Shown piece after piece: positions 34,170 to 53,202 of a stretch of DNA of 63,303 nucleotides (position 1 is the stretch's first letter; each line of letters starts with the position of its first letter). Below the pieces are notes generated by a model. The model did no database searches, was not told the DNA's origin, and worked only from the letters and a program-made list of their open reading frames with translations. The DNA comes from Bacteroidales bacterium (GTDB taxonomy: Bacteria; Bacteroidota; Bacteroidia; Bacteroidales; UBA932). The position numbers were made by a program, and so were the translations under genes. Where the stretch lies: the NCBI GenBank assembly GCA_017451395.1, contig JAFSPR010000041.1:1-63303 (forward strand), in the 5' to 3' direction.

Positions 34170-34979
34170 TCACTGATGCTCCAGCGTAAACGCCATATAC
34201 GTTATTGGCAGCCCCATCTCCAGGAACATCTTCTCATAGAACGTCTGCACGGATGTCACTTCCTGAGCAGAGAGGGGATACATATCCTGGAACCTCTGGC
34301 CACCCTCGGCCGGATAAGAGGGAGGGGCCCACGAAGTGGGAGGGGTCGGCGCAGCCGACGGTTCAAGGATATGTATCCCCTCTCCGTAAATATCAGTACC
34401 TGAAGCGATTACATTCAAATTATTGACCTTACATACAGCCTGGGTGTATTCGTAAAGATACCTGGAATCAGTCTTGAGGTGGACTATTCCGCCGGGGCGG
34501 AGGAAGCCGCGGTAGCGCTCCAGGAACATAGGTGACGAAAGCCTGGCGTTTTCAGAGCCGCGTAACTGGGGATCGGAGAAGGTGAGCCAGATTTCAGAGA
34601 CCTCGGAGGGGCCGAAGAAAGCGCCTATGAACTCTATCCTGGTGCGGAGGAACGCAACGTTTGGAAGGGCGTTCTCCGTGGCGAATTTGGCTCCGGCCCA
34701 GAGGCGGGCGCCCTTTATGTCAACGCCTATAAAATTAATCTCAGGATGCCGCAGAGCCAGGGCTATGGTATAATCCCCCTTGCCGCATCCAAGTTCCAGG
34801 ACAATGGGATGGTCATTGCCGAACATCTCCTTTCCCCAGTTGCCCTTGATGGGATGATCATTAAGGACAAGAGCCTTGGAGCCGGGAGCCTTTGGAGCCA
34901 GCACGGCAGAGGCGTCCGGCTGCAGGAGGCAGCGGAAGGTAGCGTTTTCGGCAAATTTTTTCAGTTTTCCGTGACCCAT
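34170..34979 (-). CDS. trmB: tRNA (guanine-N7)-methyltransferase with in-frame repeat insertion
   Basis: The 269-residue protein carries the TrmB motifs: SAM-binding LELGCGKGDYTIALA, GVDIKGARLW and TFSDPQLRGSENARLSSP, and the C-terminal TSVQTFYEKMFLEMGLPITY. Between them, at about residues 199-237, is a Pro/Ala-rich block that the family does not usually have, made by the 115-base repeat at 34270-34384, which leaves the frame open. Most relatives are nearer 230 residues. The insert lies before the final strand and helix, so activity may be retained. It shares one base with ricT at 34979. Confidence 0.92.
   Translation of the reverse strand: MGHGKLKKFAENATFRCLLQPDASAVLAPKAPGSKALVLNDHPIKGNWGKEMFGNDHPIVLELGCGKGDYTIALALRHPEINFIGVDIKGARLWAGAKFATENALPNVAFLRTRIEFIGAFFGPSEVSEIWLTFSDPQLRGSENARLSSPMFLERYRGFLRPGGIVHLKTDSRYLYEYTQAVCKVNNLNVIASGTDIYGEGIHILEPSAAPTPPTSWAPPSYPAEGGQRFQDMYPLSAQEVTSVQTFYEKMFLEMGLPITYMAFTLEHQ
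34270..34384. repeat. Arm-palindrome element, copy in trmB
   Basis: Inverted arms of 25 bases (34270-34294 and 34360-34384, one mismatch, core GGGGATACATATCCT) enclose a 65-base body with AAGAGGGAGGGGCCCAC and GGGAGGGGTCG. The body matches that at 53119-53183, but the arms are unrelated to those of that copy. Both arms are translated as part of TrmB. Confidence 0.9.
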
Positions 34980-36115
34980 TACTTCTTGTTACGGTTCTTG
35001 CGGCGTTTCTTACGTTTCTTTTCAGGATCGAAGCGGTTGATCGCGTCATCGCCCACGGCCGATACAAACTCCGGAGAGCGCTCCGGCTCTTCCTGAAGCG
35101 TTGCAGGACGCTCCCCGCGGCGGTTCATCGCCTGGATTTCCCTCACCTGGTCGGCCGACAATCCATATACCTTTGCAAGGGAACCCTTCTCATAGGAGAA
35201 GTACAGCATTCCGGCAAGGATGTCCGTCTTTACAAGGAAAGCCTGGCCGTCCTCAAGTTCAAGGGGCTCATTCACGCGGGGAAGGCGGGAGCGGGCATCG
35301 GTGTAAGCCGCTACTTCATAATTGAGGCAGCACTTGAGTTTTCCGCACTGGCCGGCCAGTTTCTGGGGATTCAGGGAAAGGTCCTGGACGCGGGCGGCGG
35401 CGGTTGTGATGGACTTGAACTCCGTGATGTAGTTGGCGCAGCACAGTTCACGGCCGCACACGCCAAGACCGCCGATGAGGCCGGCCTCCTGGCGGGCGCC
35501 TATCTGCTTCATCTCAACGCGGATATGGAATTCCTCCGCAAAATCCTTGATGAGTTGGCGGAAGTCCACGCGGCCGTCGGCAATGTAATAGAAGATGGCC
35601 TTGGTGCCGTCTCCCTGAAACTCCACGTCACCTATCTTCATCTCAAGGCCAAGGTTTGCGGCAAGGACGCGCGCGCGGATCATAGTTTCCTCCTCACGGG
35701 CTATTGCCTCCTGCCAGCGCTGGATGTCAAAGGGACGCGCCTTGCGGTAGATCTTCCTCAGTTCCTGCTGAGCGGGATCAACGCCCTTGCACTTCATCTG
35801 GCGGGCAACCACGGGACCCTCAAGGGTTACAATTCCTAAATCGTGGCCCGTTGCGGCCTCTACAACAACAAGGTCTCCGGTTTTGATACTCTGGCCGGAA
35901 GCGTTCACATAGATGCCCTTTCGGGTATTTTTGAAACGGACCTCGAAGTAGCCGTCCCACTGCTCCTGGGCGATGCCCTTAAGGGTATCATACACCTCAA
36001 GTTTGCAGCAGCCCTGACGGTAGCGTATATCTTTTTCTCCCGTTTCCTCGTCTGTCACTACCGTGCAGCCGCGGAAGCAGTCGAACTGGATTGATTCGTT
36101 GCTATAATCTTTCAT
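34979..36115 (-). CDS. PSP1/RicT-like protein
   Basis: The 378-residue protein has the PSP1 domain with conserved cysteines and FRQLIKDFAEEFHIRVEMKQIGARQEA, GGLGVCGRELCC and QKLAGQCGKLKCCLNYE. These Cys residues coordinate an Fe-S cluster in the RicT (YaaT) proteins, part of the RicAFT complex that modulates RNase Y in Bacillus. The C terminus is a Lys/Arg-rich tail (PEKKRKKRRKNRNKK). In Bacteroidetes it usually lies beside holB, as here (4-base overlap). Confidence 0.9.
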   Translation of the reverse strand: MKDYSNESIQFDCFRGCTVVTDEETGEKDIRYRQGCCKLEVYDTLKGIAQEQWDGYFEVRFKNTRKGIYVNASGQSIKTGDLVVVEAATGHDLGIVTLEGPVVARQMKCKGVDPAQQELRKIYRKARPFDIQRWQEAIAREEETMIRARVLAANLGLEMKIGDVEFQGDGTKAIFYYIADGRVDFRQLIKDFAEEFHIRVEMKQIGARQEAGLIGGLGVCGRELCCANYITEFKSITTAAARVQDLSLNPQKLAGQCGKLKCCLNYEVAAYTDARSRLPRVNEPLELEDGQAFLVKTDILAGMLYFSYEKGSLAKVYGLSADQVREIQAMNRRGERPATLQEEPERSPEFVSAVGDDAINRFDPEKKRKKRRKNRNKK

Positions 36116-37092
36116 AGCGATATATATAGTTTGCTCACAAGGTCTGTGAACAGGATTTTCTGGTTAACGTTGCGCTCAAGAAGCGTGAGGGCACGCTCCA
36201 GCGCCTCATTTGCCTTGCGGGGGAAGGTGGGTTTGAAGGCCCCTGCCATACGGCGGAACCAGTCCTCCTCCCCTTCCGGAAGGACAGCCAACTGCGGAGT
36301 CTTCTGTACAAGGAAGATCCGGCGGAGATCTTCAGATGCCAGCCTGCAGAAAGACTTCTGCTTCTCCCTGTCCTTAAGGTCTGCCACGGCATCGGCCGTT
36401 TCAAGCGCCTGCAGGAGATTTCTGGCCGATAAAGCCTCCAGAATATCGTGGAAGAGGTCCCTTAAGACCGCCGCGCCCGCAACCTCACGAGCGTGGACTA
36501 TTGAATCGGCCTCCATAGAAAGAGGCTGAATCCTTATGTGAAGGCAGCGGGAGGAAATGGTCACAAGCACCTTTTCCGGTGCCTGGGTGATAAGGAGGAA
36601 AAGCGTCTTCTGAGGCGGCTCCTCCACCATTTTGAGGAGGGCGTTTGCGGCCTGGGCGTTCATCTTTTCCGGGAGGTACATCACCACGGTGCGGTAGCCA
36701 CCCTCGACTGCGCTGAGGGAGAGAGTGTCAAGAAGCGCCCGGGCCTCGTGGACGGAGATGTTGCTCTGCTTCCCTTCTATGCCGATAGCCTCGTAGAGTT
36801 CGTTTTCAAAGAAGTAGGGATTGTCCTGAAGGAGTTCCCTGAAAGGGCCGATAAAAGTCCGTGACACGGGTTTATCGGGGCCTGCCACCGGGAACACGAA
36901 GTGGATGTCGGGGTGGATGAGTTTCCCCACGCGGGGATTGCCCCCGTAGAGTTCTTCAAGGAAGTTAAGGGCAATTGGGAATGCGCCGGCGCCGTCGTCC
37001 TGATGCATAAGGATGGCGTGAGGCACGTGGCCGCTTTCCACCATTCGGTGAAGGGCGTCCACAACTTCCGTATTCCCGTAAACCTTCATCAT
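36112..37092 (-). CDS. holB: DNA polymerase III delta' subunit
   Basis: The 326-residue protein matches the HolB-type clamp-loader subunit: VVDALHRMVESGHVPHAIL, NISVHEARALLDTLSLSAVEGGYRTVVMYLPEKMNAQAANALLKMVEEPPQKTLFLLIT and SRCLHIRI (sensor-1-like region). It lacks a canonical P-loop, as expected for delta'. It loads the beta clamp with DnaX and delta. Overlaps of 4 bases with both neighbours. Confidence 0.92.
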   Translation of the reverse strand: MMKVYGNTEVVDALHRMVESGHVPHAILMHQDDGAGAFPIALNFLEELYGGNPRVGKLIHPDIHFVFPVAGPDKPVSRTFIGPFRELLQDNPYFFENELYEAIGIEGKQSNISVHEARALLDTLSLSAVEGGYRTVVMYLPEKMNAQAANALLKMVEEPPQKTLFLLITQAPEKVLVTISSRCLHIRIQPLSMEADSIVHAREVAGAAVLRDLFHDILEALSARNLLQALETADAVADLKDREKQKSFCRLASEDLRRIFLVQKTPQLAVLPEGEEDWFRRMAGAFKPTFPRKANEALERALTLLERNVNQKILFTDLVSKLYISL

Positions 37093-38057
37093 TTTCCTCT
37101 CTCTCCAACATATCTTGCTATAGCCACAAGGCGGTCTTTTGCGGGGCTGTCAGGAAGGAAATCCAACTCTTCGATGGCCATATGAATGAACTCGTCCACC
37201 TTAAGGGCGCTCTTTTCAATGCCGCCGCGGCTCCTTACAAATTCCAGCACCTCACGTCCAAGTTCGGGGTTATCGGCAATCCTTGTGACCTTAGCCCTTA
37301 TATCGGCCTCATTGTCCGAGCCCTCAAGTGCGCATAGCAGGGGCTGGGTTATCTTTTGCTCCTTGAGGTCTATCCCCACGGGCTTTCCAAGGGCGTCTTC
37401 GCCGGCGGCGTAGTCCATCCAGTCGTCCTTCACCTGGAAGGCCATTCCAAGCAGCCTTGCGAACTCTCCAAGGGCCTTTATGGACTCTTCAGACGCACCC
37501 ACGGAGACCGCCGCGCTTAGGGCCGATGCCTCGAAGAGCGATGCGGTTTTGCAATAGATTATGCGTTCATAATCCTGCTGGGTGGTATCCCCTTTCACCG
37601 CCTTTTCCATCTGGAGGAGTTCGCCCTCTGCCAGGTGGCCGAGGGTTGCGGCAAAGATCCTTGTGACGCGGTCTGTGTTACAGGATGCCCCAAGTATAGT
37701 TTTCACGGCCTTTACAAGCCAGTAATCTCCTATGAGGACGGAGGCGTGGGGGTTAAGGAAACTTGCAACGGTAGGGCGGCCCCGGCGCTCCGAGGCGCAG
37801 TCCACTACGTCGTCGTGAAGGAGGGTGGCATTATGGAGAAGTTCCGCCGCCGCCGCAAACTTTATTGTGTCTTCATTTGGCGTTCCCACTGCATCGGCGC
37901 AGAGAAAGGCCAGGGAAGGCCTCATCATCTTGCCCGGGTTTTCCCTTAGGGCGCGGTTGGTGGCGTCAAGAAGGGACACATCTGAGCGGAGGGCGTCTTC
38001 TATGACACTCTCCACCTTGCCCAGCCAGGGCTCAAGATATGATTTAATCTCCTTCAA
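37089..38057 (-). CDS. Long-chain polyprenyl diphosphate synthase
   Basis: The 322-residue protein has both aspartate-rich motifs of the trans-prenyltransferase family: first LLHNATLLHDDVVDCA and second FQVKDDWMDYA, with GKMMRPSLAFL and KTASLFEAS between and before. It extends farnesyl diphosphate for menaquinone side chains; chain length is set by residues near the first motif and cannot be read reliably. It overlaps LOG by 14 bases. Confidence 0.92.
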   Translation of the reverse strand: MKEIKSYLEPWLGKVESVIEDALRSDVSLLDATNRALRENPGKMMRPSLAFLCADAVGTPNEDTIKFAAAAELLHNATLLHDDVVDCASERRGRPTVASFLNPHASVLIGDYWLVKAVKTILGASCNTDRVTRIFAATLGHLAEGELLQMEKAVKGDTTQQDYERIIYCKTASLFEASALSAAVSVGASEESIKALGEFARLLGMAFQVKDDWMDYAAGEDALGKPVGIDLKEQKITQPLLCALEGSDNEADIRAKVTRIADNPELGREVLEFVRSRGGIEKSALKVDEFIHMAIEELDFLPDSPAKDRLVAIARYVGERGK

Positions 38058-38577
38058 AGCAGTTCAGAAGTTCTTCTACTGTTTCCGGGAACTTCACAAG
38101 CGCGCGGTCACGGGGCTCCAGCATTCCGGTTTCCACAAAATGGTCCAGAAGGGCCTTCAGGGGGCTATAGAAGTCGTTCAGATTGAGGGCGTAAAGGTTT
38201 CCGGGGTACCTGCCCAGTTTTCTGAGGGTATGGGTCTCTATGAATTCGTCCATAGTGCCGATTCCTCCGGGAAGGGCAATCACGGCCAAGGTGCCTTCAC
38301 GCATTGCGGTCTTGCGGCTTGCCATAGTGTCTGTCCAGATGATCCTGGAAACACCGGGGTTCTCAAGGCCCCTCATAAACTCAGGTAGTACTGCGGTGTG
38401 GTCTCCGCCGCATTTTATGGATTCATCCGTGATGGCGCCCATAGTGCCTATCTTTCCGCCGCCGGATACAAGGCCGTAACCCTTTGCGTGGAGCCCGCGG
38501 GTAAGTTCCCTTGCGGCCTCATTGAACTCAGGGTCTATCTTTTCACTTGCAGAGCAGAAAACGGCAATCTTTTTCAT
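38044..38577 (-). CDS. LOG family protein
   Basis: The 177-residue protein carries the LOG signatures GGGKIGTMGAI, MASRKTAM and PGGIGTMDEFIE (the PGGxGTxxE motif). Characterised LOG proteins cleave nucleotide monophosphates to free base and ribose 5-phosphate. The substrate here is not known. It begins 3 bases after trxA. Confidence 0.93.
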   Translation of the reverse strand: MKKIAVFCSASEKIDPEFNEAARELTRGLHAKGYGLVSGGGKIGTMGAITDESIKCGGDHTAVLPEFMRGLENPGVSRIIWTDTMASRKTAMREGTLAVIALPGGIGTMDEFIETHTLRKLGRYPGNLYALNLNDFYSPLKALLDHFVETGMLEPRDRALVKFPETVEELLNCFEGD

Positions 38578-38580
38578 CCC

Positions 38581-38892
38581 CTACAGGTTTGCCTTGATCT
38601 TTTCCAGGAGGGCGGGCTTGGGCATTGCGCCAACGGTCTTGTCCACAATCTCACCGTTCTTCACAAAGAGAAGGGTGGGAATGCTCATAATGCGGTACTG
38701 GGCGGCAATTTCATCGGCGTCGTCCACGTTCACCTTAACAACGGTGATCTGGTCCTGCATCTCTTCCTCAATCTGGTCAAGGATGGGGGAAAGCATACGG
38801 CAGGGACCGCACCACGTTGCCCAAAAGTCAACGATTACAAGCTTACTGTCCTGCAGGAGTTCCTGAAAATTGGTATTGGTTGCTACTTTCAT
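38581..38892 (-). CDS. trxA: Thioredoxin
   Basis: A 103-residue thioredoxin with the classical WCGPC active site (27-31), preceded by VIVDFWAT, and the cis-proline SIPTLLFVKNG. No signal peptide, so cytoplasmic. It opens the long minus-strand operon; a promoter lies 24 bases before it. Confidence 0.96.
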   Translation of the reverse strand: MKVATNTNFQELLQDSKLVIVDFWATWCGPCRMLSPILDQIEEEMQDQITVVKVNVDDADEIAAQYRIMSIPTLLFVKNGEIVDKTVGAMPKPALLEKIKANL

Positions 38893-38915
38893 AAGTGTGT
38901 CTTTTTATTAACTTA

Positions 38916-38946
38916 CAAATTTAAGAAAAAAATTTTGTTACTTCAA
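38916..38946 (-). promoter_or_regulatory. trxA operon promoter
   Basis: Minus strand TTG at 38946-38944, 20-base spacer, TAAATTTG at 38923-38916. The palindromic element at 38948 begins just upstream of it. Confidence 0.7.
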
Positions 38947-38947
38947 G

Positions 38948-39055
38948 TAGTGGGGCTTAAGTTATTGATACACAGCTAAATACAGCAGTCTCTACCAGAA
39001 CTTTTTCTGGTAGAGACCCGTGTAAATACTTAAGTATCAGGCCGTTGGCTCCCGC
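38948..39055. repeat. Palindromic element, copy 1
   Basis: Shoulders TTAAGTTATTGATAC and TACTTAAGTATCA surround an inner perfect stem of 13 bases (GTCTCTACCAGAA, 38988-39000, complement 39005-39017). The shoulders themselves pair imperfectly, so the whole element is a long palindrome. Other copies: 40535-40640, about 48490-48610 (reversed) and about 50975-51085. Confidence 0.85.
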
Positions 39056-39092
39056 CGCAAGGGGAGAACCATAGAGGGGAAGGGACATAACC

Positions 39093-39614
39093 TTATTCTG
39101 GATACACTATGCACATTTGCTCTATGACCCCACTGGGCGGATATGTTACCCGATATCCTATCTTATCTAGATCATCTATATCCAATACATACTCAAGTTC
39201 ATACTTGTATTTTGTTCCAATATTCTTGACAAATTCTTCCCAGCCAACTTGTTGTATCAGCTCATCAGACCAAACTTGAATGTGAAGATTATTAGGATAG
39301 ATTTTCCTTTTTAACCACTCCCAGCCCCCTTTCGTGAGAGCTGCAAATATAGTAGATGTGGTTTTTCTTTTTGAGAACAAGAACTCTGTCCTGTAATACA
39401 ATACAGCATCTGCATTTGCGGTATTATCGTGAAAATGCTTTATCTCACTGGATGGATTTGAGTAATTTGGTATCTCATAAGAGAACCAAACATCAGAATC
39501 CGATTTATTATCCCCATCCAAAGACACTACTATACTACTGGGATCCATCAAGCATGACGTCATACAAACTAGCATAACGACAATGATAAGTAGAAAAGAT
39601 GTATTATCACTCAT
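39093..39614 (-). CDS. Lipoprotein, possible immunity protein
   Basis: The 173-residue product has a short lipoprotein signal with the box VCMTSC, then mixed alpha/beta sequence with many Tyr, Trp and Lys. I do not recognise a family. Its base composition is markedly more AT-rich than the flanking core genes. It lies 14 bases after the Rhs-type fragment on the same strand, the position of an immunity gene beside a toxin tip. That role is inference. Confidence 0.6.
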   Translation of the reverse strand: MSDNTSFLLIIVVMLVCMTSCLMDPSSIVVSLDGDNKSDSDVWFSYEIPNYSNPSSEIKHFHDNTANADAVLYYRTEFLFSKRKTTSTIFAALTKGGWEWLKRKIYPNNLHIQVWSDELIQQVGWEEFVKNIGTKYKYELEYVLDIDDLDKIGYRVTYPPSGVIEQMCIVYPE

Positions 39615-39628
39615 TTAACTCGAAAATA

Positions 39629-40006
39629 TTAGAGAGGAAATTCGTCAATAATAGTCCTACCGCGATATTTGTCTTTTTTCCAATCCACACCATAAAACCG
39701 GCCAAAGTAATCAGAGGCATTCCTATTAGCACGTGTTTCCGTCCAATAATAGTTGTGAGCCCAAATAAAATGACCTTCTGGTGATGTTCCCCAACCATTT
39801 CCACTAGCACTTATTAGACTTAGCAATGCCACAACAGGCAAATATGAAGGCCCAAAAATCTGGCTATCAATATAGTGCCCATATTCATGCATATAAACAG
39901 GCGTCTTTCGGACAAAGGAATCAAAATTCTGAGGTATAGTTCCTTCATGATTAATATAAATATTGCTTCCAAGGGTAAAACCACCATCACCTGATGCATT
40001 ATTAGT
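39629..40006 (-). pseudogene. Truncated Rhs-type C-terminal domain with HExxH motif
   Basis: The frame is open for 126 codons (40006 to 39629) but has no start until Met at 39892. The text GDGGFTLGSNIYIN, then MHEYGHYIDSQIFGPSYLP, LLSLISASG and WTETRANRNASDYFG resembles the ends of Rhs/wall-associated proteins from Bacteroidetes. HEYGH fits the HExxH zinc-protease motif, and the Glu in TETRAN could be the third ligand. All of the Rhs repeat region is missing, so this is a remnant or an orphan toxin tip. A stop lies directly upstream. Confidence 0.65.
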
Positions 40007-40010
40007 TTAA

Positions 40011-40042
40011 CAAATATAGCGATTCCCGGAAAATAATACAAA
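40011..40042 (-). promoter_or_regulatory. Promoter-like sequence before the Rhs fragment
   Basis: Minus strand TTTG (40042-40039), 20-base spacer, TATATTTG (40018-40011): a full consensus match, 5 bases before the open frame. Whether it is active is unknown. Confidence 0.5.
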
Positions 40043-40166
40043 TATCGCACAGACGCAAAAATGAATCAACGACATTTTTCGTTATTACGAATCTGGTACA
40101 ACTATATGTTTAAACCCATACAGCGTCCATCTGTTTGTATCATTGGATTAATGAGAAATAGATGGT

Positions 40167-40301
40167 TCCGAAAGTTAAACCGCACTTTGGGCTCTGGAGG
40201 GCCGATAATGCAGTTTAGGCAGGGTTACGGACACGGGGTAAACCGCAGCACCACCTCTCAGAATATGTTATATGGCATGTACGTGCGGTTTAAGTTTCGG
40301 A
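40167..40301. mobile_element. MITE-like 135-base element
   Basis: Terminal inverted repeats of 19 bases (TCCGAAAGTTAAACCGCAC at 40167-40185 and its complement with one mismatch at 40283-40301) enclose 97 bases of non-coding sequence. No target duplication is obvious. The short plus-strand ORF across it has no coding character. Confidence 0.6.
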
Positions 40302-40324
40302 CAAATACTGACGCCCGACCTCTG

Positions 40325-40465
40325 CCTTGCCGCAAGTACAAGAAATCGGCTTTATACAACAAATAAATGGATTGGCGGCAAAGAAAACCGTCCAAAACGC
40401 CATTTTGCTTGCCGCGAGTACAAAAAAACCTCATTGTGGGGCTTCTGAATGGATTGGCGGCAGAA
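40325..40465. repeat. Degenerate tandem repeat
   Basis: Two diverged units begin CTTGCCGC(A/G)AGTACAA (40327, 40409) and end ATGGATTGGCGGCA (40367, 40449). The GGATTGGCGGCA word also forms a hairpin arm at 1398-1411. Confidence 0.55.
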
Positions 40466-40534
40466 AATACACTTGGCTTTACGCATAATACCTAAGCTTT
40501 ACTATTCACGGTAATCCAAAGTCATAAGATATGG

Positions 40535-40640
40535 TGGGACTTAAGTTATTGATACTCAGCTAAATACATAAGTCTTTCCCATTACCGGTAATGGGAAAGA
40601 CTCATGTAAGTTACTGAAAATTAGCCGTTTAGGTCACACG
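40535..40640. repeat. Palindromic element, copy 2
   Basis: Same left shoulder as copy 1 (ACTTAAGTTATTGATAC, CAGCTAAATACA) in the same orientation, but the inner stem is a different 32-base perfect palindrome (40571-40602, core CCCATTACCGGTAATGGG). With copy 1 it brackets the AT-rich islet as a direct repeat. Confidence 0.85.
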
Positions 40641-40651
40641 GCCACCGATAT

Positions 40652-41338: not shown

Positions 41339-41391
41339 TGTATGCTTTTTTAGGTTTAATCTTATTTCAGACGCAAAGGTAGCAAAAAAAA

Positions 41392-41685
41392 CTAAATTGC
41401 ATCCTCTACGGGAAGAAGGTATGCCCTGAGGCCAAGAGCACTGTTGGCGGCGTCCTTTTCACGCAGCGCGTCCATAATCTTGGGCGCAAGGGAATCCTCC
41501 ACGGCCGTAAGGACGGCGTGGTTCTGGGCCGGCCAGGCGTGTGATCCAAGGTGAGGTTCACCGTCTACGGTTCCCCTTCCGCCAACTTCATTCCACACGG
41601 TGTAACCTCTCTGTCCAAGGTTTTCAAGGAGTTCTACAATCTCCTGATTGTATGCCTGATTGTATGCAATAAAAACAGCTTTCAT
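41392..41685 (-). CDS. Small PII-like protein beside RND efflux genes
   Basis: Starting at 41685 (MKAVFIAYNQAYNQEIVELL) gives 97 residues of compact alpha/beta sequence: a first strand, a helix with LENLGQRGYTVWNEV, a loop GGRGTVDGEPHLGSHAWPAQN, and LTAVEDSLAPKIMDAL. The strand-helix-strand pattern suggests the ferredoxin-like PII fold, but this is not proved. It is 4 bases after the RND stop and last in the efflux operon. Confidence 0.65.
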   Translation of the reverse strand: MKAVFIAYNQAYNQEIVELLENLGQRGYTVWNEVGGRGTVDGEPHLGSHAWPAQNHAVLTAVEDSLAPKIMDALREKDAANSALGLRAYLLPVEDAI

Positions 41686-41689
41686 AATT

Positions 41690-45852: not shown

Positions 45853-47362
45853 ATGTCTTTTCTTCTGTAAAATCGTAACCTAATGTCTGTTCAAGGCCGG
45901 CCTTCGCTACCACGAAGTTGTATACGGCCTGCGCCGCCTGGAGGCGGGTCTGGGTGAGGGTGAGTTCAGTGTTGTTCAGGTCCGTGAGGGTGCTCTTTCC
46001 AACCTCGAAACTCTTGGAGGCAATGTTGTAGGCTTTCTCGGCGCTGGTAAGGGCCTCCTTGGCTGCGTCGTAGGTTTTCATTGCCGTATCCATAGTGGAG
46101 AGGCTCTGGCGGATACCTATCCGGATCTGACGCTCAGTGTTTTCCCTCTGAAGTTCAAGTTCATCGGCCTGAACCCTTGTCTGCTTTATAGTATGGTAGC
46201 GCTGGCCTCCGGAGAAGATGGGGATGCTGAGGGAGAACACCGCCGTAGATGAAGGCAGCCATTTCCACTGGGCCAGGTTGAATTTGTCGCTCTGGGTGTA
46301 GTAGTTATAAGATATCTGGGCCGATAAAGTGGGAAGATACGCGTACTGCTGCATCCTTATCTGCTTGGAAAGGACCTCTGCCTGAGCGGCCAGCTGACGG
46401 AGCTGGGTATTGCGGTCAAGGGAGGCTTCCGTGCCTTCGTTTATGTCGTAGAACATATGCTCCGCGAAGTCCTCAAGGGCGCCCACCACGTCTACGGGGC
46501 GGTCAAGGTCAAGGCCCATCACGGCTTTGAGTTGCCACAGTGACAGGTAGATGGCGTTTTCCGCGTTATAGACGTTGGGGATTGCGGCGGCAAGGGAACT
46601 CTGGGCGCGGGCAAGGTCAAGTTCTGACGCCTTCTGGACGTTGTACCTGCTTTCCGTGGTCTTCAGGTTCTGGGCGGCGTTTTCAAACACCGCGTTGTAA
46701 ACGTCGTAGGAGGCCTTTGCCATAAGGACGGCGTAGTAGGCCTGCTTCACCTGGGTAACTGTGCCAAGGCGGCTTTCACGGGCCTTTTCAACTGCAAGTT
46801 CCACCTGGTCTCCGGTGATGCAGAGGCTCTCCCAGAGTTGGGCGTTGATTATGGGCATCGAGGCGCTAAGGCCAAGTTGCACCTGGTTCCGGCGGCCCAT
46901 TTCAATTGGGTCACTGCTGGAAGATGTCTTCTCCTCTGTCTTTGGAGCCTGATATGGCACAAAGGGAGTGCTTGTTGCCGCATAGAGTTGCTGGATGTAG
47001 TACATTATGGGCTCGAAGGCGCTTGTCATCATGGATGCCATGCCACCACCGCCTGAACCGGAGGATTCGTCGTCCGAGCCGAAGAACACCTTCTGCTTCT
47101 GGATGGCGTAACTGTACATTCCGGTGGCGTTGATCTGGGGGAAAAGCGCGCCGTAAGCGCCCTTACGGGCGTATTTTTGGCGCTGAACCTCCATATCGGC
47201 CACCTTTACGGACGTATTTTCACTGAGGGCTATCTTGATGGCGTCGTCCAGCGTAAGCACAAGCGTAGAGTCCGCCGCCTCCTGAGGTAAATCCTTATAC
47301 TGTGCCCAGGCCGCAGAAGGCAGCAGAATGGCAAGCGCAAGGATCAATTTTTTAACACACAT
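45845..47362 (-). CDS. TolC-like outer-membrane efflux channel
   Basis: The start at 47362 gives 505 residues with a signal peptide (LILALAILLPSAAWA) and two OEP repeats: helix-strand-helix blocks with TLDDAIKIALSEN, GALFPQINATGMYSY, and a second half ending with LNNTELTLTQTRLQAAQAVYNFVVAKAGLEQTLG. It is the first gene of the efflux operon. A disordered Ser/Gly loop (about 90) is unusual but plausible in a surface loop. Confidence 0.92.
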   Translation of the reverse strand: MCVKKLILALAILLPSAAWAQYKDLPQEAADSTLVLTLDDAIKIALSENTSVKVADMEVQRQKYARKGAYGALFPQINATGMYSYAIQKQKVFFGSDDESSGSGGGGMASMMTSAFEPIMYYIQQLYAATSTPFVPYQAPKTEEKTSSSSDPIEMGRRNQVQLGLSASMPIINAQLWESLCITGDQVELAVEKARESRLGTVTQVKQAYYAVLMAKASYDVYNAVFENAAQNLKTTESRYNVQKASELDLARAQSSLAAAIPNVYNAENAIYLSLWQLKAVMGLDLDRPVDVVGALEDFAEHMFYDINEGTEASLDRNTQLRQLAAQAEVLSKQIRMQQYAYLPTLSAQISYNYYTQSDKFNLAQWKWLPSSTAVFSLSIPIFSGGQRYHTIKQTRVQADELELQRENTERQIRIGIRQSLSTMDTAMKTYDAAKEALTSAEKAYNIASKSFEVGKSTLTDLNNTELTLTQTRLQAAQAVYNFVVAKAGLEQTLGYDFTEEKTYE

Positions 47363-47441
47363 AAAACTAACTGAATAAGCTGGCAATTTACTGCAAAAAT
47401 TGGGCCTGCGCAGCGTCCCCGTCATTCATTCGCCCTCTGTC

Positions 47442-47490
47442 ATTCCAAGTGTAGCTTCTTTGTCATTCCGAGTGTAGCCGAGGAATCTCA
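47442..47490. repeat. Dispersed short repeats before lgt
   Basis: Two units GTCATTCC(A/G)AGTGTAGC, the second followed by CGAGGAATCTC, fill part of the divergent gap between the efflux operon and lgt. They are reversed relative to the copy at 41695. Confidence 0.7.
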
Positions 47491-47499
47491 AAAATGTAT

Positions 47500-47507
47500 T
47501 ATATTTG
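47500..47507 (+). promoter_or_regulatory. -7 box immediately before lgt
   Basis: TATATTTG is 4 bases from the ATG at 47512, so transcription would start at about the start codon. No -33 element is found at the right distance. Confidence 0.45.
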
Positions 47508-47511
47508 CAGT

Positions 47512-48459
47512 ATGGAAACACTCATTGTACATTGGAATGTGAACCCCGCCATTTTCCATATCGGCGGGTTTGAACTCAGGTGGTACTCTCTGCTGTTTGT
47601 CAGCGGCTTCATCCTGGGCTGGTTCATAATGAAACGCTTTTTCAACAGGGAAAAGATAAGCGAGACCCTTCTGGACCCTATGCTATATATGCTTCTGATC
47701 TGCACCATAGTGGGCGCTCGCCTTGGTCACTGCCTGTTCTATGAGCCGGATTACTACCTTGCACCGTTCTTCCAGATGTTCGGAGGCACCGTTTCCCCTC
47801 AGGTGGCCGCACGCGGAATGACCAATTGGCAGGCCTTCTGGGAAATCTTCATGCCCTGGAAAGGCGGCCTGGCCAGCCATGGCGGCACCATAGCCATCAT
47901 CCTTGGCATCATCTGGTATGCCCGCAAGTACGGCCCTGCAAACGGCTTCGACTTCGTGTGGGTTGTGGACCACCTTGTGATTCCCATCTCATTCGCCGCG
48001 TGCTTCATCCGTCTTGGAAACCTCTTCAACTCAGAGATTTACGGCGGTCCCACCACCCTTCCCTGGGGCTTTGTGTTCGAGCGCAACGGAGAAACCGTTC
48101 CCTGCCATCCCACCCAGTTATATGAGGCCGGCACCTATCTCCTCCTTGGTTTCCTCCTTATGTGGCTGTACTGGCATAAACTGGAAAAGATCTACCGCGG
48201 CACCTTTATGGGCATCTTTATGATAGTGTGCTTCGGAAGCCGCTTCCTCATTGAGTTCGTGAAGAATGACCAGGTTGACTTCGAGGCCAATATGGTCCTC
48301 AATATGGGTCAACTCCTCTCCATCCCGTTCGTGCTCCTTGGCATCGGCTTCCTGGTGTACGCCTACGTGAAGAAGCAGCCCGCTATGGCCATCCCCCCGG
48401 CACCCGCCGCCAAGCCCAAGGCCCAGCCCACCCACTTCGCACACCCCACCGGGAAATAG
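47512..48459 (+). CDS. lgt: Prolipoprotein diacylglyceryl transferase
   Basis: From the ATG at 47512 (METLIVHWNVNPAIF) the protein has 315 residues and seven membrane helices. Lgt motifs are visible: LGHCLFYEPDYY, ASHGGTIAI and the signature CFIRLGNLFNSEIYG, plus the last helix GMFSMGQLLSIP-type NMGQLLSIP. It attaches diacylglycerol to lipoprotein cysteines. A Pro/Ala tail (IPPAPAAKPKAQPTH) is longer than usual. The start is likely leaderless given the -7 box position. Confidence 0.95.
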   Translation: METLIVHWNVNPAIFHIGGFELRWYSLLFVSGFILGWFIMKRFFNREKISETLLDPMLYMLLICTIVGARLGHCLFYEPDYYLAPFFQMFGGTVSPQVAARGMTNWQAFWEIFMPWKGGLASHGGTIAIILGIIWYARKYGPANGFDFVWVVDHLVIPISFAACFIRLGNLFNSEIYGGPTTLPWGFVFERNGETVPCHPTQLYEAGTYLLLGFLLMWLYWHKLEKIYRGTFMGIFMIVCFGSRFLIEFVKNDQVDFEANMVLNMGQLLSIPFVLLGIGFLVYAYVKKQPAMAIPPAPAAKPKAQPTHFAHPTGK

Positions 48460-48489
48460 TCACCCCCCCATCGGCTTTCTCTCCCATTA

Positions 48490-48712
48490 CTGTAATGCCG
48501 ATGTAGTGGAGCCCAACTAGCTCACTATCAGTTACTTACATGATTATTTGGGATTACCAGTAATCCCAAATAATCCCATAACTTACTGTGTATCAGCCAC
48601 TTAACCTCCACCGATTCTACCGTTGGACCTGGTCCACACGCAGCAGCCACGCTGCGGCCGTGTTGACAGCCAGAACGCTCAGAATGGGGTTTTTGTGTCA
48701 ACACGGCAAGGA
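48490..48712. repeat. Left inverted repeat of the transport cassette
   Basis: About 220 bases that reappear inverted at 50831-51095. It contains a palindromic element (reversed copy 3, inner palindrome ATTTGGGATTAC..GTAATCCCAAAT at 48546-48571), the palindrome GGACCTGGTCC (48627), and a hairpin with perfect 12-base arms GCCGTGTTGACA (48657-48706). From about 48622 to 48712 the two arms differ at only a few positions. Confidence 0.9.
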
Positions 48713-48714
48713 CT

Positions 48715-48746
48715 TTTGCGAATGCCGTGGCAAATGACTACCTTTG
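48715..48746 (+). promoter_or_regulatory. Promoter of the phosphatase-transporter pair
   Basis: TTTG at 48715-48718, 20-base spacer, TACCTTTG at 48739-48746, 11 bases before the start. It begins right where the left inverted repeat ends. Confidence 0.8.
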
Positions 48747-48757
48747 TGCACTGAATT

Positions 48758-49372
48758 ATGCCTAAAGCAATAGTATTTGACATAGGCGGGGTCCTGATAG
48801 GCCTCAATATGAGCAGGTGCATCCAAGCATTCCGCTCCGGTCTTGGCTTTGAGAGGATTACGCAACTGCTTGATCCTTATCACCAGAAGGGTATTTACGG
48901 TGAACTGGAGGGCGGCCGCCTCAGCGAGCAGCACTTCAAGGAACTTGTCCTTGCAGAGTCCCGCCCCGGAACAAAGCCTCAGGATGTGGAATATGCTATG
49001 GGAGAACTTCTTGACAAGAAGATGGATCCCCGTACAGTCAAGGCCGTCCTTGACCTTAGGGGAAAATACCCGCTCTACCTCCTTTCCAACAACAATCCAA
49101 TCTCTATGAGGCACTGCCTGAGAGTGCTGAAAGACAACGGAATTGACCCGGAGGCCACTTTCAGGGACCAGTTCATATCATCAGACCTTAAGATGATGAA
49201 ACCGGCCCCGGAGTTCTATAACTACGTGATCCAGAGGATAGGACAGCCGCCTCAGGAGATACTCTTCATAGATGACAACAAGGCCAATGTAGACGGAGCA
49301 AGGGCGGTTGGACTGGATGCCCGCCTCTATAATCCGGGAACGGACCTTGGCCTTCTTCTTTCAGACTGTTAG
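48758..49372 (+). CDS. HAD-family (IA) phosphatase
   Basis: The 204-residue protein has HAD motif I FDIGGVLIG (nucleophile Asp8), motif II YLLSNNN and motif III LKMMKPAPEFYNYV with the DDNKANVDGA acidic end. A DxG instead of DxD at the second position is found in YihX-like sugar-phosphatases. Substrates are small phosphate esters. The transporter gene starts 3 bases after the stop, so an imported sugar phosphate is the natural substrate. Confidence 0.9.
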   Translation: MPKAIVFDIGGVLIGLNMSRCIQAFRSGLGFERITQLLDPYHQKGIYGELEGGRLSEQHFKELVLAESRPGTKPQDVEYAMGELLDKKMDPRTVKAVLDLRGKYPLYLLSNNNPISMRHCLRVLKDNGIDPEATFRDQFISSDLKMMKPAPEFYNYVIQRIGQPPQEILFIDDNKANVDGARAVGLDARLYNPGTDLGLLLSDC

Positions 49373-49374
49373 AA

Positions 49375-50727
49375 ATGTCCCTCTACAGCCACTTCCGCAT
49401 AAGTAAGCCGTCAGCGGCAAAAGTGCCGTCAGGAGAGGTGGACGCCACTTACAGGCGTCTTCGAAGCCGCACTTTCTGGGGCGTCACCATAGCATATACT
49501 TTATATTATGTATGCCGGATGACTCTTGGCGTTGTGAAGCAGCCCCTCATTGACGGAGGCGTTCTCACGGCCGGGCAACTTGGCATCATAGGTTCCGCCT
49601 TCTACTTTGTCTATGCGGTTGGAAAGTTCCTTAACGGCTTCATTGCTGATTACTGCAACATCCGCAGGTTTATGGCTGTGGGAATAGGGATATCGGCAGC
49701 GGTCAATCTGATCCTTGGGCTGATGGGCCTCCTTCAGGGGCCTCTTGGCTTTGGCTCCGTGGTGATGCTTGTCACTTTCACGCTGCTCTGGGGCATCAAC
49801 GGCTGGATGCAGTCAATGGGGTCTCCTCCCGGAACAATAAGCCTCTCCCGCTGGTTCCCGCTTTCTCTTAGGGGTCGATACTACAGCATCTTCTCCTCCA
49901 CCCCTCAACTTGGAAAAGCCGTCTCAATGATGATGACGGGATTCATCGTTGCCGCCGCAGGGTGGCAGTGGGGTTTTCTGGCCGCTGCAGTGGCAGGGCT
50001 TATGGGCCTTGTGGTGTCCCTCATCTTCATTGCCGATACCCCCGAAAGCCAGGGTCTCCCTTCCGTCCAGGAACTCTCAGGAGAAGAGACCAGGCCGCTT
50101 GATAAAAAGCCCACACGTGAACTCCAGAAGTGGGTGTTCAAGCACCCCGGAATCTGGGTCATAGCCATCTCCACGGCATTTTTGTACGTAACTCAGCATG
50201 CAGTCTCCGACTGGGGTGTACTGTTTCTCCAGAAGCAGAAGGGGTTCTCCCTTGAGGGGGCAACGCAGGTGATCGGCCTTGCCGAAATCTTTGGCGTGGC
50301 TGGTAACCTTGCCGCCGGGTGGATCTCCGATGTCTTACTAAAGGGCAACCGCGTAAAGCCCGTGGTGGCATCCGGCGTCCTTGCAGTATGCTCGCTGGCC
50401 GCGTTCCTGTTCCTTGGCGGCGGCTTCTGGGGCAATATGGCTTTTGTGGCCCTGTTCAGTTTTGCATTCAGCGTGGTGTTCTGCATTGTGGCCGGGCTTA
50501 TGGCGCTGGACTTCGTGCCCCGCAAAGCAACAGGCGCCGCACTTGGCATAGTTGGAATCTCCAGTTATGCCGCTGCCGGCCTCCAGAGTGTTGTGAGCGG
50601 CTTCCTCATCGAGGGGAACACTACTGCCGGGGCATATAACTTCACTCCCGTTTCCATCTTCTGGATAGCGGCTTGCCTTCTGGCGTTCACCCTCCCGGTC
50701 ATAGGGTGGAAATACCTGCGGAAATAG
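49375..50727 (+). CDS. Organophosphate:phosphate antiporter (GlpT/UhpT family)
   Basis: The 450-residue MFS protein begins YRRLRSRTFWGVTIAYTLYYVCRMTLGVVKQPLI, the OPA-family start with conserved Arg and Tyr residues, and has twelve helices with GWMQSMGSPPGTISLSRWFPLSLRGRYYSI. OPA members swap glycerol 3-phosphate or hexose 6-phosphate for inorganic phosphate; UhpC is a sensor relative. Linked to a phosphatase, import and dephosphorylation of a phosphorylated sugar is inferred. Its stop lies 100 bases before the right inverted repeat. Confidence 0.9.
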   Translation: MSLYSHFRISKPSAAKVPSGEVDATYRRLRSRTFWGVTIAYTLYYVCRMTLGVVKQPLIDGGVLTAGQLGIIGSAFYFVYAVGKFLNGFIADYCNIRRFMAVGIGISAAVNLILGLMGLLQGPLGFGSVVMLVTFTLLWGINGWMQSMGSPPGTISLSRWFPLSLRGRYYSIFSSTPQLGKAVSMMMTGFIVAAAGWQWGFLAAAVAGLMGLVVSLIFIADTPESQGLPSVQELSGEETRPLDKKPTRELQKWVFKHPGIWVIAISTAFLYVTQHAVSDWGVLFLQKQKGFSLEGATQVIGLAEIFGVAGNLAAGWISDVLLKGNRVKPVVASGVLAVCSLAAFLFLGGGFWGNMAFVALFSFAFSVVFCIVAGLMALDFVPRKATGAALGIVGISSYAAAGLQSVVSGFLIEGNTTAGAYNFTPVSIFWIAACLLAFTLPVIGWKYLRK

Positions 50728-50830
50728 ACTTTGCGGGCGTGGTTCGCCCTTTGCCGTGTTGACACGTAAAACGCCCCTAAGGCCGATTCTGGTACCCACA
50801 CGGCAACGTTTTTGGCGTTTTGGGGCAATT

Positions 50831-51095
50831 TCCTTGCCGTGTTGACACAAAAACCCCATTCTGGGCGTTCTGGCTGTCAACACGGCCTCAGCGTGGCTGC
50901 TGCGTGTGGACCAGGTCCAAAAGGGTGGTGGACCAGGTCCGGGAATGCGGTGGACCTGGTCCAGCCACCAAACTAGTGGAAGCCAAACAACTGACACATA
51001 GCAAGTTACGCAGTTATTTGGTATTACCGGTAATCCCAAACAACCGCGTAAGTAACTGACAATAAACAAGTTGAGCTCCACCGCATCGGCATTAC
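50831..51095. repeat. Right inverted repeat of the transport cassette
   Basis: Reverse complement of the left copy, longer by about 40 bases that carry two extra GGACC(A/T)GGTCC palindromes (50930, 50951). The GCCGTGTTGACA hairpin is at 50837-50886 and copy 4 of the palindromic element at about 50975-51085 with a slightly mismatched core. 50728-50830 also holds another GCCGTGTTGACA half-hairpin at 50753. Confidence 0.9.
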
Positions 51096-51114
51096 GGCAC
51101 AAGGCAGGGGGAGC

Positions 51115-51156
51115 AAAAAAGAAACCCGCACGCGAATTTCACAATTGGCGGCGGGT
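51115..51156 (-). terminator. Terminator downstream of the YitT gene
   Basis: On the minus strand the stem ACCCGC / GCGGGT (51156-51151 and 51129-51124) is followed by a T-rich run (51123-51115). It probably ends the atp-yitT transcript. Confidence 0.6.
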
Positions 51157-51198
51157 GTATGGTAAGGTATCAATATTTATGTCTGATACCACTTATAT

Positions 51199-52131
51199 CT
51201 AATTCTGTGCCAAACTCTTCTTTTTACGAGTTTTTTTGTGCCAGTCACCGTAAATTTCGCTCACGTTGCCTGCTGTGATGAATCCGTGGATGTCGTTTGA
51301 CTTCATATAATCCATAAGATGCGCAAACTCGTCCTGGGTAAGCAGGGCCTGGATCTCAACATTCTGATGGCCGTTGTAGCCGCCCGTGACATTGTACAGG
51401 GAGCAGCCGCGTTCAAGGTCCTCGATGATGTACTTACGCAGACGCTCGTACTGTGAGGAAATGATACACACCCTCTTTCGGCGGTTGAGGCCGGCAGTGA
51501 AGTAATCCAGCGCAAGGCCGTTGATCCAGGTTCCTATAAGGCCAATGACAACCAGCCTGAACGGGTTGATGGCAAACGCCGTGCAGCAGATGATGGCTCC
51601 GGCGACTGACACGGACGTACCTATCTCAATGTGCAGGTACTTGTTCACAATCTTTGCCAGGATATCCAGCCCGCCGGTTGACGCATTGATATGGAAAAGT
51701 ATGGTCTGGGAGGCGCTGAGGATGAGCACAAAGCAGATCAGGTCGAACCAGGGGTCGTTCATAAGGGACATCTGCCCCGGCTCCAGAAGGCGGTCGATGG
51801 GCAGCACCTTCTCCCAGAAATCCACCAGCGGACCAAGGATAAGGGCCGTGTAAACCGTCTTGGCCCCGAATTCCTTGCCGATAAGGATCCAGGCCAGCAC
51901 CAGCAGGATGGCGTTGATGATAACTATCACCTGCGAAACCTTGATGCCGATACCTGCGATGTTCAGCAGTTTTCCAATCACGATGGAAAGACCCGTAATG
52001 GAGCCCACAACAAGTTTTGAAGGCATAAGGAAGTAGTAAACAGCCGCGGCCGCTATGGTCATACCGGCAGTCATAATGAACAGTTCCTTCCAGAATTTCC
52101 AGGTTTTCAGAATTTCAAGAATGTTTTTCAT
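51199..52131 (-). CDS. YitT-family membrane protein
   Basis: The 310-residue protein has five or six membrane helices (AAAAVYYFLMPSKLVVGSITGLS, TGGLDILAKIVNKY) and a C-terminal DUF2179 domain (about 225-300) with VTGGYNGHQNVEIQALLTQDEFAHL. Such proteins are usually predicted transporters of unknown substrate. It begins 20 bases after the atpG stop on the same strand, so it rides on the ATP synthase operon. Confidence 0.85.
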   Translation of the reverse strand: MKNILEILKTWKFWKELFIMTAGMTIAAAAVYYFLMPSKLVVGSITGLSIVIGKLLNIAGIGIKVSQVIVIINAILLVLAWILIGKEFGAKTVYTALILGPLVDFWEKVLPIDRLLEPGQMSLMNDPWFDLICFVLILSASQTILFHINASTGGLDILAKIVNKYLHIEIGTSVSVAGAIICCTAFAINPFRLVVIGLIGTWINGLALDYFTAGLNRRKRVCIISSQYERLRKYIIEDLERGCSLYNVTGGYNGHQNVEIQALLTQDEFAHLMDYMKSNDIHGFITAGNVSEIYGDWHKKTRKKKSLAQN

Positions 52132-52151
52132 TTTATGTGGTTAGTCTTGTC

Positions 52152-53084
52152 TTATTCGGCGGCCTGGCCTCCCGCGAGGTCCAGGATCTCCGATGTAATC
52201 TTCTGCTGACGGCTCTTGTTGTATTGAAGAGTCAGTTCAGAAAGCAGGTTCTCTGCATTGTCCGTTGCGGTTTGCATGGCAATTGTGCGGGCCGCGTGCT
52301 CCGCCGCCGCGCTGTCAAGGAGCGCAGCGTATAGTTTCAGTTTCAGTGTCCGGGGTATCAGGGCCTCCAGCAGTTCCCGGGCCGATGGCTCCAGGATGGG
52401 GCGGCTGGGATCTTCAGCCGGAAGGGACGGCATTTCTGGAGCATTTGCACGGATAGGGTCGTGAAGCGACGCTCCAGAAATGCCGTCCCTTCCGGCTGCA
52501 TGCAGCAGCGGCTCCACCACGGGAACCTGCTTGGCGGTGGACACGAAGTGCGTGTACACAAGTGTCACGCCGCTTATCCTGCCCTCATAGAAGTCTTCTG
52601 ACAACTTCTCCACAATGGCCGCAGCCTCCGCATATGCCGGGTGCTCGGAGAGAGCGGAGTAGTCTGAGGGGGATTGGAACCCGTCACGGGCCATTGCATC
52701 GGCCATCTTGCGGCCAATTGAATACACAACGTCATCTGGCTTTCTAACTGCCCTCACCTTTGCAATCACATTGGCATTGAACCCGCCGCAAAGGGAAGAG
52801 TTGGACGCAACCGCGATGATAACTGCCGGTGATGTGACATTTTCCGGCACATCACCTGCAAAATCGGCCCTTTTTGACGGTGATGTAACTTTTTCAGTCA
52901 CATCACCCGCACCCGAAGCCATCTCCAGCATCCTTCGGAGTTCCTCCTCATAGGGCCGCATTGCCGCTATGGCGTTCTGCGCCTTACGCAGTTTGGCCGA
53001 TGACACCAGTTTCATTGCCGATGTTATCTTCAGCGTACTCTTCACAGACCCTATCCGGCCCTTTATTTCCTTTAACGTTGGCAT
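52152..53084 (-). CDS. atpG: ATP synthase gamma subunit with two in-frame repeat insertions
   Basis: The 310-residue protein has the gamma start (MPTLKEIKGRIGSVKSTLKITSAMKLVSSAKLRKAQ), SNSSLCGGFNANVI and the C-terminal ATDNAENLLSELTLQYNKSRQQKITSEILDLAGG, which form the rotating shaft. Two stretches are unlike the family: residues about 60-86, two tandem GDV(T/P)E(K/N)VTSP units, and about 196-224, from a palindromic repeat (52415-52498). Both fall in exposed regions away from the coiled coil, so function may survive. It is separated from atpA by 128 bases holding another repeat. Confidence 0.94.
   Translation of the reverse strand: MPTLKEIKGRIGSVKSTLKITSAMKLVSSAKLRKAQNAIAAMRPYEEELRRMLEMASGAGDVTEKVTSPSKRADFAGDVPENVTSPAVIIAVASNSSLCGGFNANVIAKVRAVRKPDDVVYSIGRKMADAMARDGFQSPSDYSALSEHPAYAEAAAIVEKLSEDFYEGRISGVTLVYTHFVSTAKQVPVVEPLLHAAGRDGISGASLHDPIRANAPEMPSLPAEDPSRPILEPSARELLEALIPRTLKLKLYAALLDSAAAEHAARTIAMQTATDNAENLLSELTLQYNKSRQQKITSEILDLAGGQAAE
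52415..52498. repeat. Arm-palindrome element, short copy inside atpG
   Basis: Perfect 28-base inverted arms (52415-52442 and 52471-52498) enclose a 28-base body ending AGGGTCGTGAAGCGAC, which matches the end of the body at 53119-53183 (GGGTCGCGAAGCGAC). The arms are unlike those of the other two copies. It keeps the reading frame open. Confidence 0.88.
52828..52907. repeat. Tandem hairpin repeat inside atpG
   Basis: Two 29-base units (52828-52856 and 52879-52907) begin GGTGATGT and end CACATCACC, so each is a hairpin with 7-9 paired bases. The period is 51 bases (17 codons), giving the repeated peptide GDVTEKVTSP / GDVPENVTSP. Confidence 0.85.
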
Positions 53085-53099
53085 ATCATAAGCGTAAGC

Positions 53100-53202
53100 G
53101 ACATATTATCTGAAAACCTGTTGCCACCCTCGGCATCATAAGAGGGAGGGGCCCACCGCAGGTGGGAGGGGTCGCGAAGCGACGGTTTTCAGATGATATG
53201 TC
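53100..53202. repeat. Arm-palindrome element between atpG and atpA
   Basis: Inverted 19-base arms (53100-53118 and 53184-53202, one mismatch, GACATATTATCTGAAAACC on the left) enclose a 65-base body nearly identical to the trmB copy (CCACCCTCGGC, AAGAGGGAGGGGCCCAC, GTGGGAGGGGTCG). Since the rest of the atp operon is nearly gapless, this insert separates the two genes. Confidence 0.9.

What the first reader, a model, noticed from the sequence alone, without database searches (positions are those of the whole stretch)
34270..53202. Repeat element with a conserved body and locus-specific inverted arms
Three copies (34270-34384, 52415-52498, 53100-53202) share a body (65 bases in two copies, a 28-base remnant in one, all ending in a ...GGTCG...CGAC motif). 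Yet each is flanked by 19-28-base arms that are inverted copies of each other and differ between loci. Insertion into an existing hairpin, or inverted copying of the flank during insertion, would explain this. I know of no named element with this build; a similar GC-rich body is common in Bacteroidales genomes as far as I recall, but I cannot confirm it.
Basis: seen in the sequence. Interest (0 to 1): 0.75.

Follow-up and report, generated by a model that had tools for sequence, protein, structure and literature searches.

The report
In-gene hairpins with locus-specific arms
Small DNA hairpins with a shared core but arms that differ from place to place sit in frame inside many core genes of a Bacteroidales bacterium, and each core likely builds its own hairpin by copying the short palindrome where it lands backwards on its other side.

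Summary
The three copies are the only such inverted repeats in the window; 30 shuffles gave none. They belong to two families. Type A (34270-34384, 53099-53203) has 19 armed copies in this genome; type B (52415-52498 plus ten) has a near-constant 38-base core and is no remnant of A. 24 of the 30 lie in open frames, many in core genes. Cores almost identical between loci carry arms no more alike than average, so core and arm histories differ. Arms pair over about 21 bp (B) or 25 bp (A) and share a weak palindromic consensus; type A cores carry a covarying pseudoknot. At four sites some relatives keep one palindromic arm and no core. I first read dnaX as a proven insertion with an inverted copy of its target; a check with all usable DnaX relatives withdrew that, since the insert also occurs outside the clade: direction is open and loss at least as likely. 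Committed reading: a core that enters and leaves short palindromic docking sites, copying the site backwards on entry, with template switching keeping arms paired and flipping cores. Close rival: whole hairpins spread and drift. The enzyme is unknown.

The parts
34270..34294 (+). E1 left arm (type A), locus-specific, pairs with 34360-34384
34295..34359 (+). E1 body (type A core, 65 bases)
   Evidence: identical in relatives G183 and G125
34295..34314 (+). E1 stem 1 with loop ACCCTC; stem varies on both sides among copies
34303..34322 (+). E1 pseudoknot: loop CCCTC (34303-34307) with GAGGG (34318-34322)
   Evidence: four different loop/partner combinations, all 5 of 5 paired
34328..34340 (+). 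E1 stem 2 (length and sequence vary between copies)
34345..34359 (+). E1 stem 3 (GTCGGC-GCA-GCCGAC), terminal hairpin of the kind also seen in type B
34360..34384 (+). E1 right arm
34170..34979 (-). host gene of E1: trmB-like methyltransferase (Methyltransf_4), read through E1 in frame, element antisense to gene
52415..52442 (+). E2 left arm (type B), 28/28 paired; its last 4-5 bases are core sequence drawn into the arm
52438..52471 (+). E2 type B core, 34-base pattern match with 2 mismatches
52471..52498 (+). E2 right arm
52152..53084 (-). host gene of E2: ATP synthase gamma (PF00231), open through E2
53099..53118 (+). E3 left arm (type A)
53119..53183 (+). E3 body (type A, 65 bases), between atpG and the ATP synthase alpha/beta-type gene
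53184..53203 (+). E3 right arm

Best explanation
The three window copies belong to two families of small foldable repeats, found with paired arms at 30 examined places in this genome, whose core likely enters short palindromic docking sites on its own and then copies the site backwards to make the second arm. Shown: cores nearly identical between loci whose arms are no more alike than average; arms of fixed reach with a palindromic consensus; coreless single-arm alleles at four sites; a covarying pseudoknot in type A cores; cores in either orientation at the same site; most copies inside open frames of protein genes. Inferred: a single-stranded folded copy (DNA or RNA) joins one edge of the palindrome, its 3' end pairs with its own 5' end through the short inner stem, primes synthesis back over about 17-25 bases of the site, and the gap is closed. 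Inferred too: ordinary replication template switching between the arms then repairs mismatches and flips the core, and slippage removes core plus one arm, leaving a palindrome that can be entered again. The enzyme is unknown; IS200-like (Y1) transposases are a candidate by co-occurrence only. I found no host benefit; the simplest view is a tolerated selfish element in protein loops.
For: Copies and arms. Core and arm histories differ: of 14 type A pairs with cores >=95% identical, four are the same locus (arm identity 0.77-1.0) and ten are different loci with arms 0.32-0.64, mean 0.51, little better than the 0.47 mean of all own pairs. Arm reach: type B pairing 85-100% at -1 to -21, about half at -22 to -24, chance by -27 (34 non-redundant of 57 usable of 71); type A 78-100% to -25, about 60% to -28, near chance beyond -32 (45 of 61). 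Docking consensus CGGnAGGGGAnnCCCTTTCY; arms self-pair above shuffles (score >=4: 0.32 v 0.12). Single-arm alleles: dnaX in G125 and G183 (GCGGGAGCAGAGGCTCC, once; here the same 17 bases, 46 bases, then their exact reverse complement with loop AGAG as CTCT), L235 and L134b in G183, 5 of 120 prephenate dehydrogenases. Clade-specific cores: the TTGCGAAGCAA subtype is found only in G000 (7), G183 (5), G125 (1) of 200 genomes. Pseudoknot: 38 of 42 distinct cores pair 5 of 5. Arm homogenisation and spacer inversion are known effects of template switching (PMC8604942, abstract).
Against: No insertion is polarised. For dnaX, 13 of 113 usable relatives have the core after AGAEAP, and two of them (P0145, P0176) branch outside the clade in which 11 filled and 38 uninterrupted alleles are mixed; 13 more have the core elsewhere or with other arms in the linker. 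So the filled state is probably old and the uninterrupted allele may be a loss. Beyond the second arm native sequence resumes only as CGT, and the whole proteins are about equal in length (579 v 580 aa), so a deletion lies beside it in any case. Single arms with either loop (GAEAP and GASAP) are what slippage would leave. Bare prephenate dehydrogenases (DRIKEKK) lack both arms; 5 of 10 aligned relatives have no spacer at all at E3; L019's empty relatives hold at most about 10 outer bases of one arm. Arms resemble each other above chance, as arm-bearing elements that drift would.
Confidence: 0.45

Rival explanations
1. The whole hairpin (arm-core-arm) moves as one unit; insertions are old; arms then drift at each locus while template switching or selection keeps them paired, and cores stay alike by constraint or exchange. 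Coreless single-arm alleles are losses.
For: Many sites are shared between species; orthologous arms differ yet pair (E3 v L054; L010 v G125 L165; L134a); arm consensus and 47-55% mean identity; E3 and bare prephenate dehydrogenases; the DnaX tree.
Against: Ten different-locus pairs with cores >=95% identical, variable stem 2 included (L193 v L002 100%), have arms little more alike than average; core exchange must be added to explain this.
Confidence: 0.35
2. Cores are exchanged by recombination between pre-existing hairpins, with no insertion mechanism of their own.
For: The G183 folP element looks like a recombinant of two arm types; cores are alike within a lineage and differ between lineages; the same gene loops hold different families in different species.
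Against: Needs hairpins to exist first, and short, partly diverged cores are poor substrates (general knowledge).
Confidence: 0.1
3. Invertible switches: a recombinase flips the core to control genes.
For: Cores occur in both orientations at the same site.
Against: Arms differ at every locus, so no shared recombinase site is seen; most copies lie inside reading frames.
Confidence: 0.03
4. The insert is removed from RNA or skipped by the ribosome, so the protein is unchanged.
For: Strong hairpins in conserved genes.
Against: 24 of 30 copies are spanned by an open frame of at least 150 codons, which skipping would not need.
Confidence: 0.04

Closest known systems
Rickettsia palindromic elements (RPE)
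   Same: Short palindromic repeats in frame in unrelated protein genes, ten families named for one species (PMC10969869 and PMC6649704, passages seen).
   Different: Here arms differ by locus and stay paired, while RPE are said to lose repeat identity over time (PMC6649704 passage); covarying pseudoknot; core flips. No RPE sequence was compared here.
REP sequences / REPINs with RAYT transposases
   Same: Small foldable repeats, some inside genes; IS200-like transposase genes in the same genomes (PMC3733652 passages). The terminal hairpin holds CGTC on the other strand in 55 of 71 type B hits, and CGTC REPs are said to lack a dedicated transposase (PMC3733652, abstract passage).
   Different: In REP dimers the paired units are the conserved repeat and the spacer may vary or not; here the paired arms vary and the middle is conserved.
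Replication template switching at quasi-palindromes
   Same: Makes arms identical and inverts the spacer (PMC8604942 abstract; PMC8794818 search listing).
   Different: It does not by itself bring in a shared core.
Coding palindromes of Nematomorpha mitochondria
   Same: Long paired arms inside coding genes, kept perfect, gained and lost between species (PMC6649704 passages).
   Different: No shared mobile core is described in the passages seen.

Membership tests
Rickettsia palindromic elements | insertion in frame inside unrelated protein-coding genes | tested here: met
Rickettsia palindromic elements | family sequence conserved over the whole palindrome (recalled) | tested here: not met
   arms differ by locus; the core is the conserved part
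Rickettsia palindromic elements | sequence homology to a known RPE family | not tested
   no RPE sequence compared
REP / REPIN | conserved inverted units | tested here: not met
   the inverted units (arms) are the variable part
REP / REPIN | GTAG or CGTC tag at one end of a hairpin | tested here: inconclusive
   CGTC overlaps the terminal hairpin on the other strand in 55 of 71 type B hits, not in the TTGCG subtype; GTAG not counted
REP / REPIN | RAYT gene flanked by the repeat | tested here: not met
   11 Y1 stretches: elements in two, 3.0 and 4.0 kb away, none nearer in what was fetched
MITE | fixed terminal inverted repeats | tested here: not met
   termini differ by locus
MITE | direct target duplication | tested here: inconclusive
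   none seen at dnaX, where the second arm is inverted, but no insertion is polarised
Invertons (recombinase switches) | shared recombination site in the inverted repeats | tested here: not met
known structured RNA families (Rfam 15) | match above gathering score | tested here: not met
   (only two tRNAs in the window); nothing above gathering

The most novel reading that the evidence does not exclude
A new kind of mobile element: a pseudoknotted single-strand core of about 40-130 bases that carries no gene, docks at short palindromes, makes its own hairpin by copying the docking site backwards (an inverted target duplication), and cycles in and out of the same in-frame sites in core genes of one Bacteroidales genus, flipping between its arms.
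Probability: 0.35. Interest if true: 0.87.

Novelty: new variant of a known kind. Interest (0 to 1): 0.68.

Why it matters
Either reading gives a natural system with dozens of loci per genome for watching hairpins stay paired, flip and lose their cores inside working genes. If the inverted copy is made on entry, it is an insertion outcome that my two narrow text searches did not turn up. It also shows genes for tRNA modification, clamp loading, folate synthesis and ATP synthase with inserts of roughly 20 to 60 codons, which affects gene calling and structure work in these gut bacteria.

Tried and rejected
My first motif printed only 60 of 120 listed DnaX proteins; a recount found the core in 27 of 120 and the sequences and a tree (FastTree on the part before the linker, midpoint root, many weak nodes) showed it outside the clade too. 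I lowered the main odds from 0.6 to 0.45, the novel case from 0.45 to 0.35 and interest from 0.72 to 0.68.

Rfam match: none of substance. Reverse transcriptase as mover: PF00078 in 32 of 101 genus genomes, none in this one, no association with type A (both 23, element only 46, RT only 9, neither 23; Fisher p 0.65). Y1 transposase as mover: associated (63, 6, 15, 17; p 2e-6; three genomes without Y1 inferred by subtraction; Y1 counted at E <= 0.001, 70 of the 78 over the curated cut-off; relatedness not corrected), but not beside elements, so only a candidate. Virus carriage: no exact match of one type A and one type B pattern in viral contigs. Empty sites for E1-E3: E1 is present in both near relatives, E2's site holds other repeats there, E3 is in G183 with one arm lost and replaced in G125. 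Other type A sites: mostly occupied, deleted or holding other repeats. L239, L231, L233: diverged or occupied. Literature: searches showed no paper on such elements in Bacteroidales; PMC library only.

Rows dropped: of the body hits I left out the contig-end copy (L009), half copies and hits without a body (L018, L020, C131:29573); 17 of 59 rows without a C-rich loop were dropped, and the filter itself fixed GGG in the partner and CC in the loop, so only about two of the five pairs are free evidence. L008/L178 had no exact motif; one search shows it flipped; I left it undecided; 7 of the 120 DnaX proteins lacked the anchor and were left out.

Full report
What is there. The three places are real and stand out: 30 dinucleotide shuffles gave no inverted repeat of this strength, loop and span, and the single strands fold 7 to 11 sd below shuffles. 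The window is a contig of a 2.15-Mb, 133-contig draft genome; the nearest relatives by atpG are rumen Bacteroidales MAGs. From equal contig length (152,922) I infer that relative G183 is RUG722.

Two families. Type A has a core of 63 to 134 bases: stem 1 with a six-base loop, a pairing of that loop with a site just downstream, a variable stem 2 and a terminal hairpin. I resolved 19 copies with paired arms in this genome. Type B has a 38-base core with a TCGCGAAGCGA-type hairpin; 11 copies here. The window's 52415-52498 copy is type B. In it, and in 5 others of 71 type B hits (L203, L224, L246, L261, L262), the arms have grown into the core's GGAG, as arm-to-arm copying would do.

Folding. Among 42 distinct type A cores kept, 38 pair 5 of 5 between loop and downstream site in four combinations (CCCTC/GAGGG 26, CCCCC/GGGGG 8, CCCAT/ATGGG 2, CCCGC/GCGGG 2); four pair 3 or 4 of 5. 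My filter fixed the GGG of the partner and two Cs of the loop, so the free evidence is mainly the two variable positions. Stem 1 also changes on both sides. This suggests a folded single strand, DNA or RNA.

Where it sits. All 11 type B and 13 of 19 type A copies are spanned by an open frame of at least 150 codons; the longest such frame is antisense to the element in 18 of these 24. Pfam names 19 hosts scanned: TrmB-like, AtpG, TilS, a glycosyltransferase, UvrA-like, RibF, DapF, FolP, TruB; prephenate dehydrogenase, DnaX, PolA-like exonuclease, a DUF6259 protein, a class I tRNA synthetase, an M20 peptidase, a UPF0004 protein, an alanine-racemase-type protein, MetRS, an rRNA adenine dimethylase. 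By reading the printed cores, the antisense strand of E1 and of the type B consensus is open in all three frames and the sense strand has a stop in one. The host loops are permissive: TrmB, FolP, AtpG and prephenate dehydrogenase hold different inserts in different species.

Arms. Type B arms pair 85-100% at -1 to -21, about half at -22 to -24, and reach chance by -27; they share CGGnAGGGGAnnCCCTTTCY and are more self-complementary than shuffles. Type A arms pair 78-100% to -25, about 60% to -28, near chance beyond -32, with a weaker consensus. Of 14 pairs of type A copies with cores at least 95% identical, four are the same locus in relatives (arms 0.77 to 1.0) and ten are different loci with arms 0.32 to 0.64, mean 0.51, against 0.47 for all own pairs. 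So either the core moves without its arms, or cores are evened out between loci afterwards. The type B TTGCG subtype, found only in G000, G183 and G125 among 200 genomes, shows cores alike within a lineage.

Coreless alleles. In dnaX, G125 and G183 read GCGGGAGCAGAGGCTCC then CGTGGCG; here the same 17 bases are followed by 46 bases, their exact reverse complement, and CGTAAAG. The second arm carries the loop as CTCT instead of AGAG. L235 and L134b look alike against G183, with 57 and 51 extra bases. In prephenate dehydrogenase, of 120 listed proteins 36 have the core one way in HSG.EA/GASA arms, 2 the other way in the same arms, 5 a single arm and no core. Each could be an empty docking site or a loss. 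The DnaX tree argues against a young insertion: the core after AGAEAP occurs in 13 of 113 usable proteins, two of them outside the clade where filled and uninterrupted alleles mix, sometimes with near-identical flanking protein. A cycle of loss and re-entry at the same palindrome would explain this, as would old insertions with repeated losses and recombination. I cannot separate them.

Turnover. At the same site the core lies the other way round in 8 of 25 species comparisons, 16 are the same and 1 is undecided. Arms are kept or nearly so in three of the eight (L004, L234, L236) and differ in five (L003, L010, L013 twice, L015), so some of the five may be other insertions; L003/L175 clearly holds another subfamily. 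Arms of one site differ between species and still pair. Template switching does both things in yeast (PMC8604942, abstract); I infer the same here.

Distribution. Type A: 69 of 101 genomes of the genus, 3 of 295 across the order including this one. Type B pattern, up to 3 mismatches: 22 of 200 genus genomes, reversed-pattern control zero in the rows shown.

Mover. Y1 (IS200-like) genes occur in 78 of 101 genus genomes, five matches in this one, four of them confirmed by Pfam, and go with type A presence (relatedness not corrected). In 11 Y1 stretches the nearest elements are 3.0 and 4.0 kb away, in two stretches. Reverse transcriptase shows no association. The enzyme stays open.

Judgement. 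It works like a selfish palindromic element in coding genes, as in Rickettsia, but its paired ends are the variable part. How the arms arise is unsettled; I commit to copying of the docking site at 0.45, with the whole-hairpin model close behind.

Noticed in passing
L138, L056, L057, L060 (folP and atpG loops): A third hairpin kind with a ~20-base core like GC(T)AAAAnnAnGGCCGATGC between paired locus-specific arms, at gene loops that hold types A or B in other species.
   Followed up: partly
L170, L182, L187, L188, L274, prephenate dehydrogenase and DnaX proteins: Other short repeats, of the CCCGGTCAAGCCGGGCATGACG and TTCGCTTCGCTCAGAATGACA kind, fill the same loops in relatives.
   Followed up: no
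window 40565-40608, 48542-48575; L289 2997-3028: Near-perfect palindromes without a core; two contain TTTGGGATTAC/GTAATCCCAAA, one of them near a Y1 transposase gene: possible REP-like units of those transposases.
   Followed up: no
window 34170: The trmB reading frame ends about 33 codons earlier than in close relatives (269 v about 302 aa); draft-assembly error or real truncation not resolved.
   Followed up: no
window 34295-34359 and L197, L198: E1's body is identical in three species whose flanks differ visibly: constrained, recently exchanged or young.
   Followed up: partly
L194 (G183 folP): The element has the left arm of this genome's type and the right arm of G125's type, an apparent recombinant with unpaired arms.
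   Followed up: partly
DnaX proteins P0121-P0240: Filled and uninterrupted linkers occur on near-identical DnaX proteins, which suggests gain, loss or recombination within populations.
   Followed up: partly
L017: A type A copy repeats its core and right arm in tandem.
   Followed up: no
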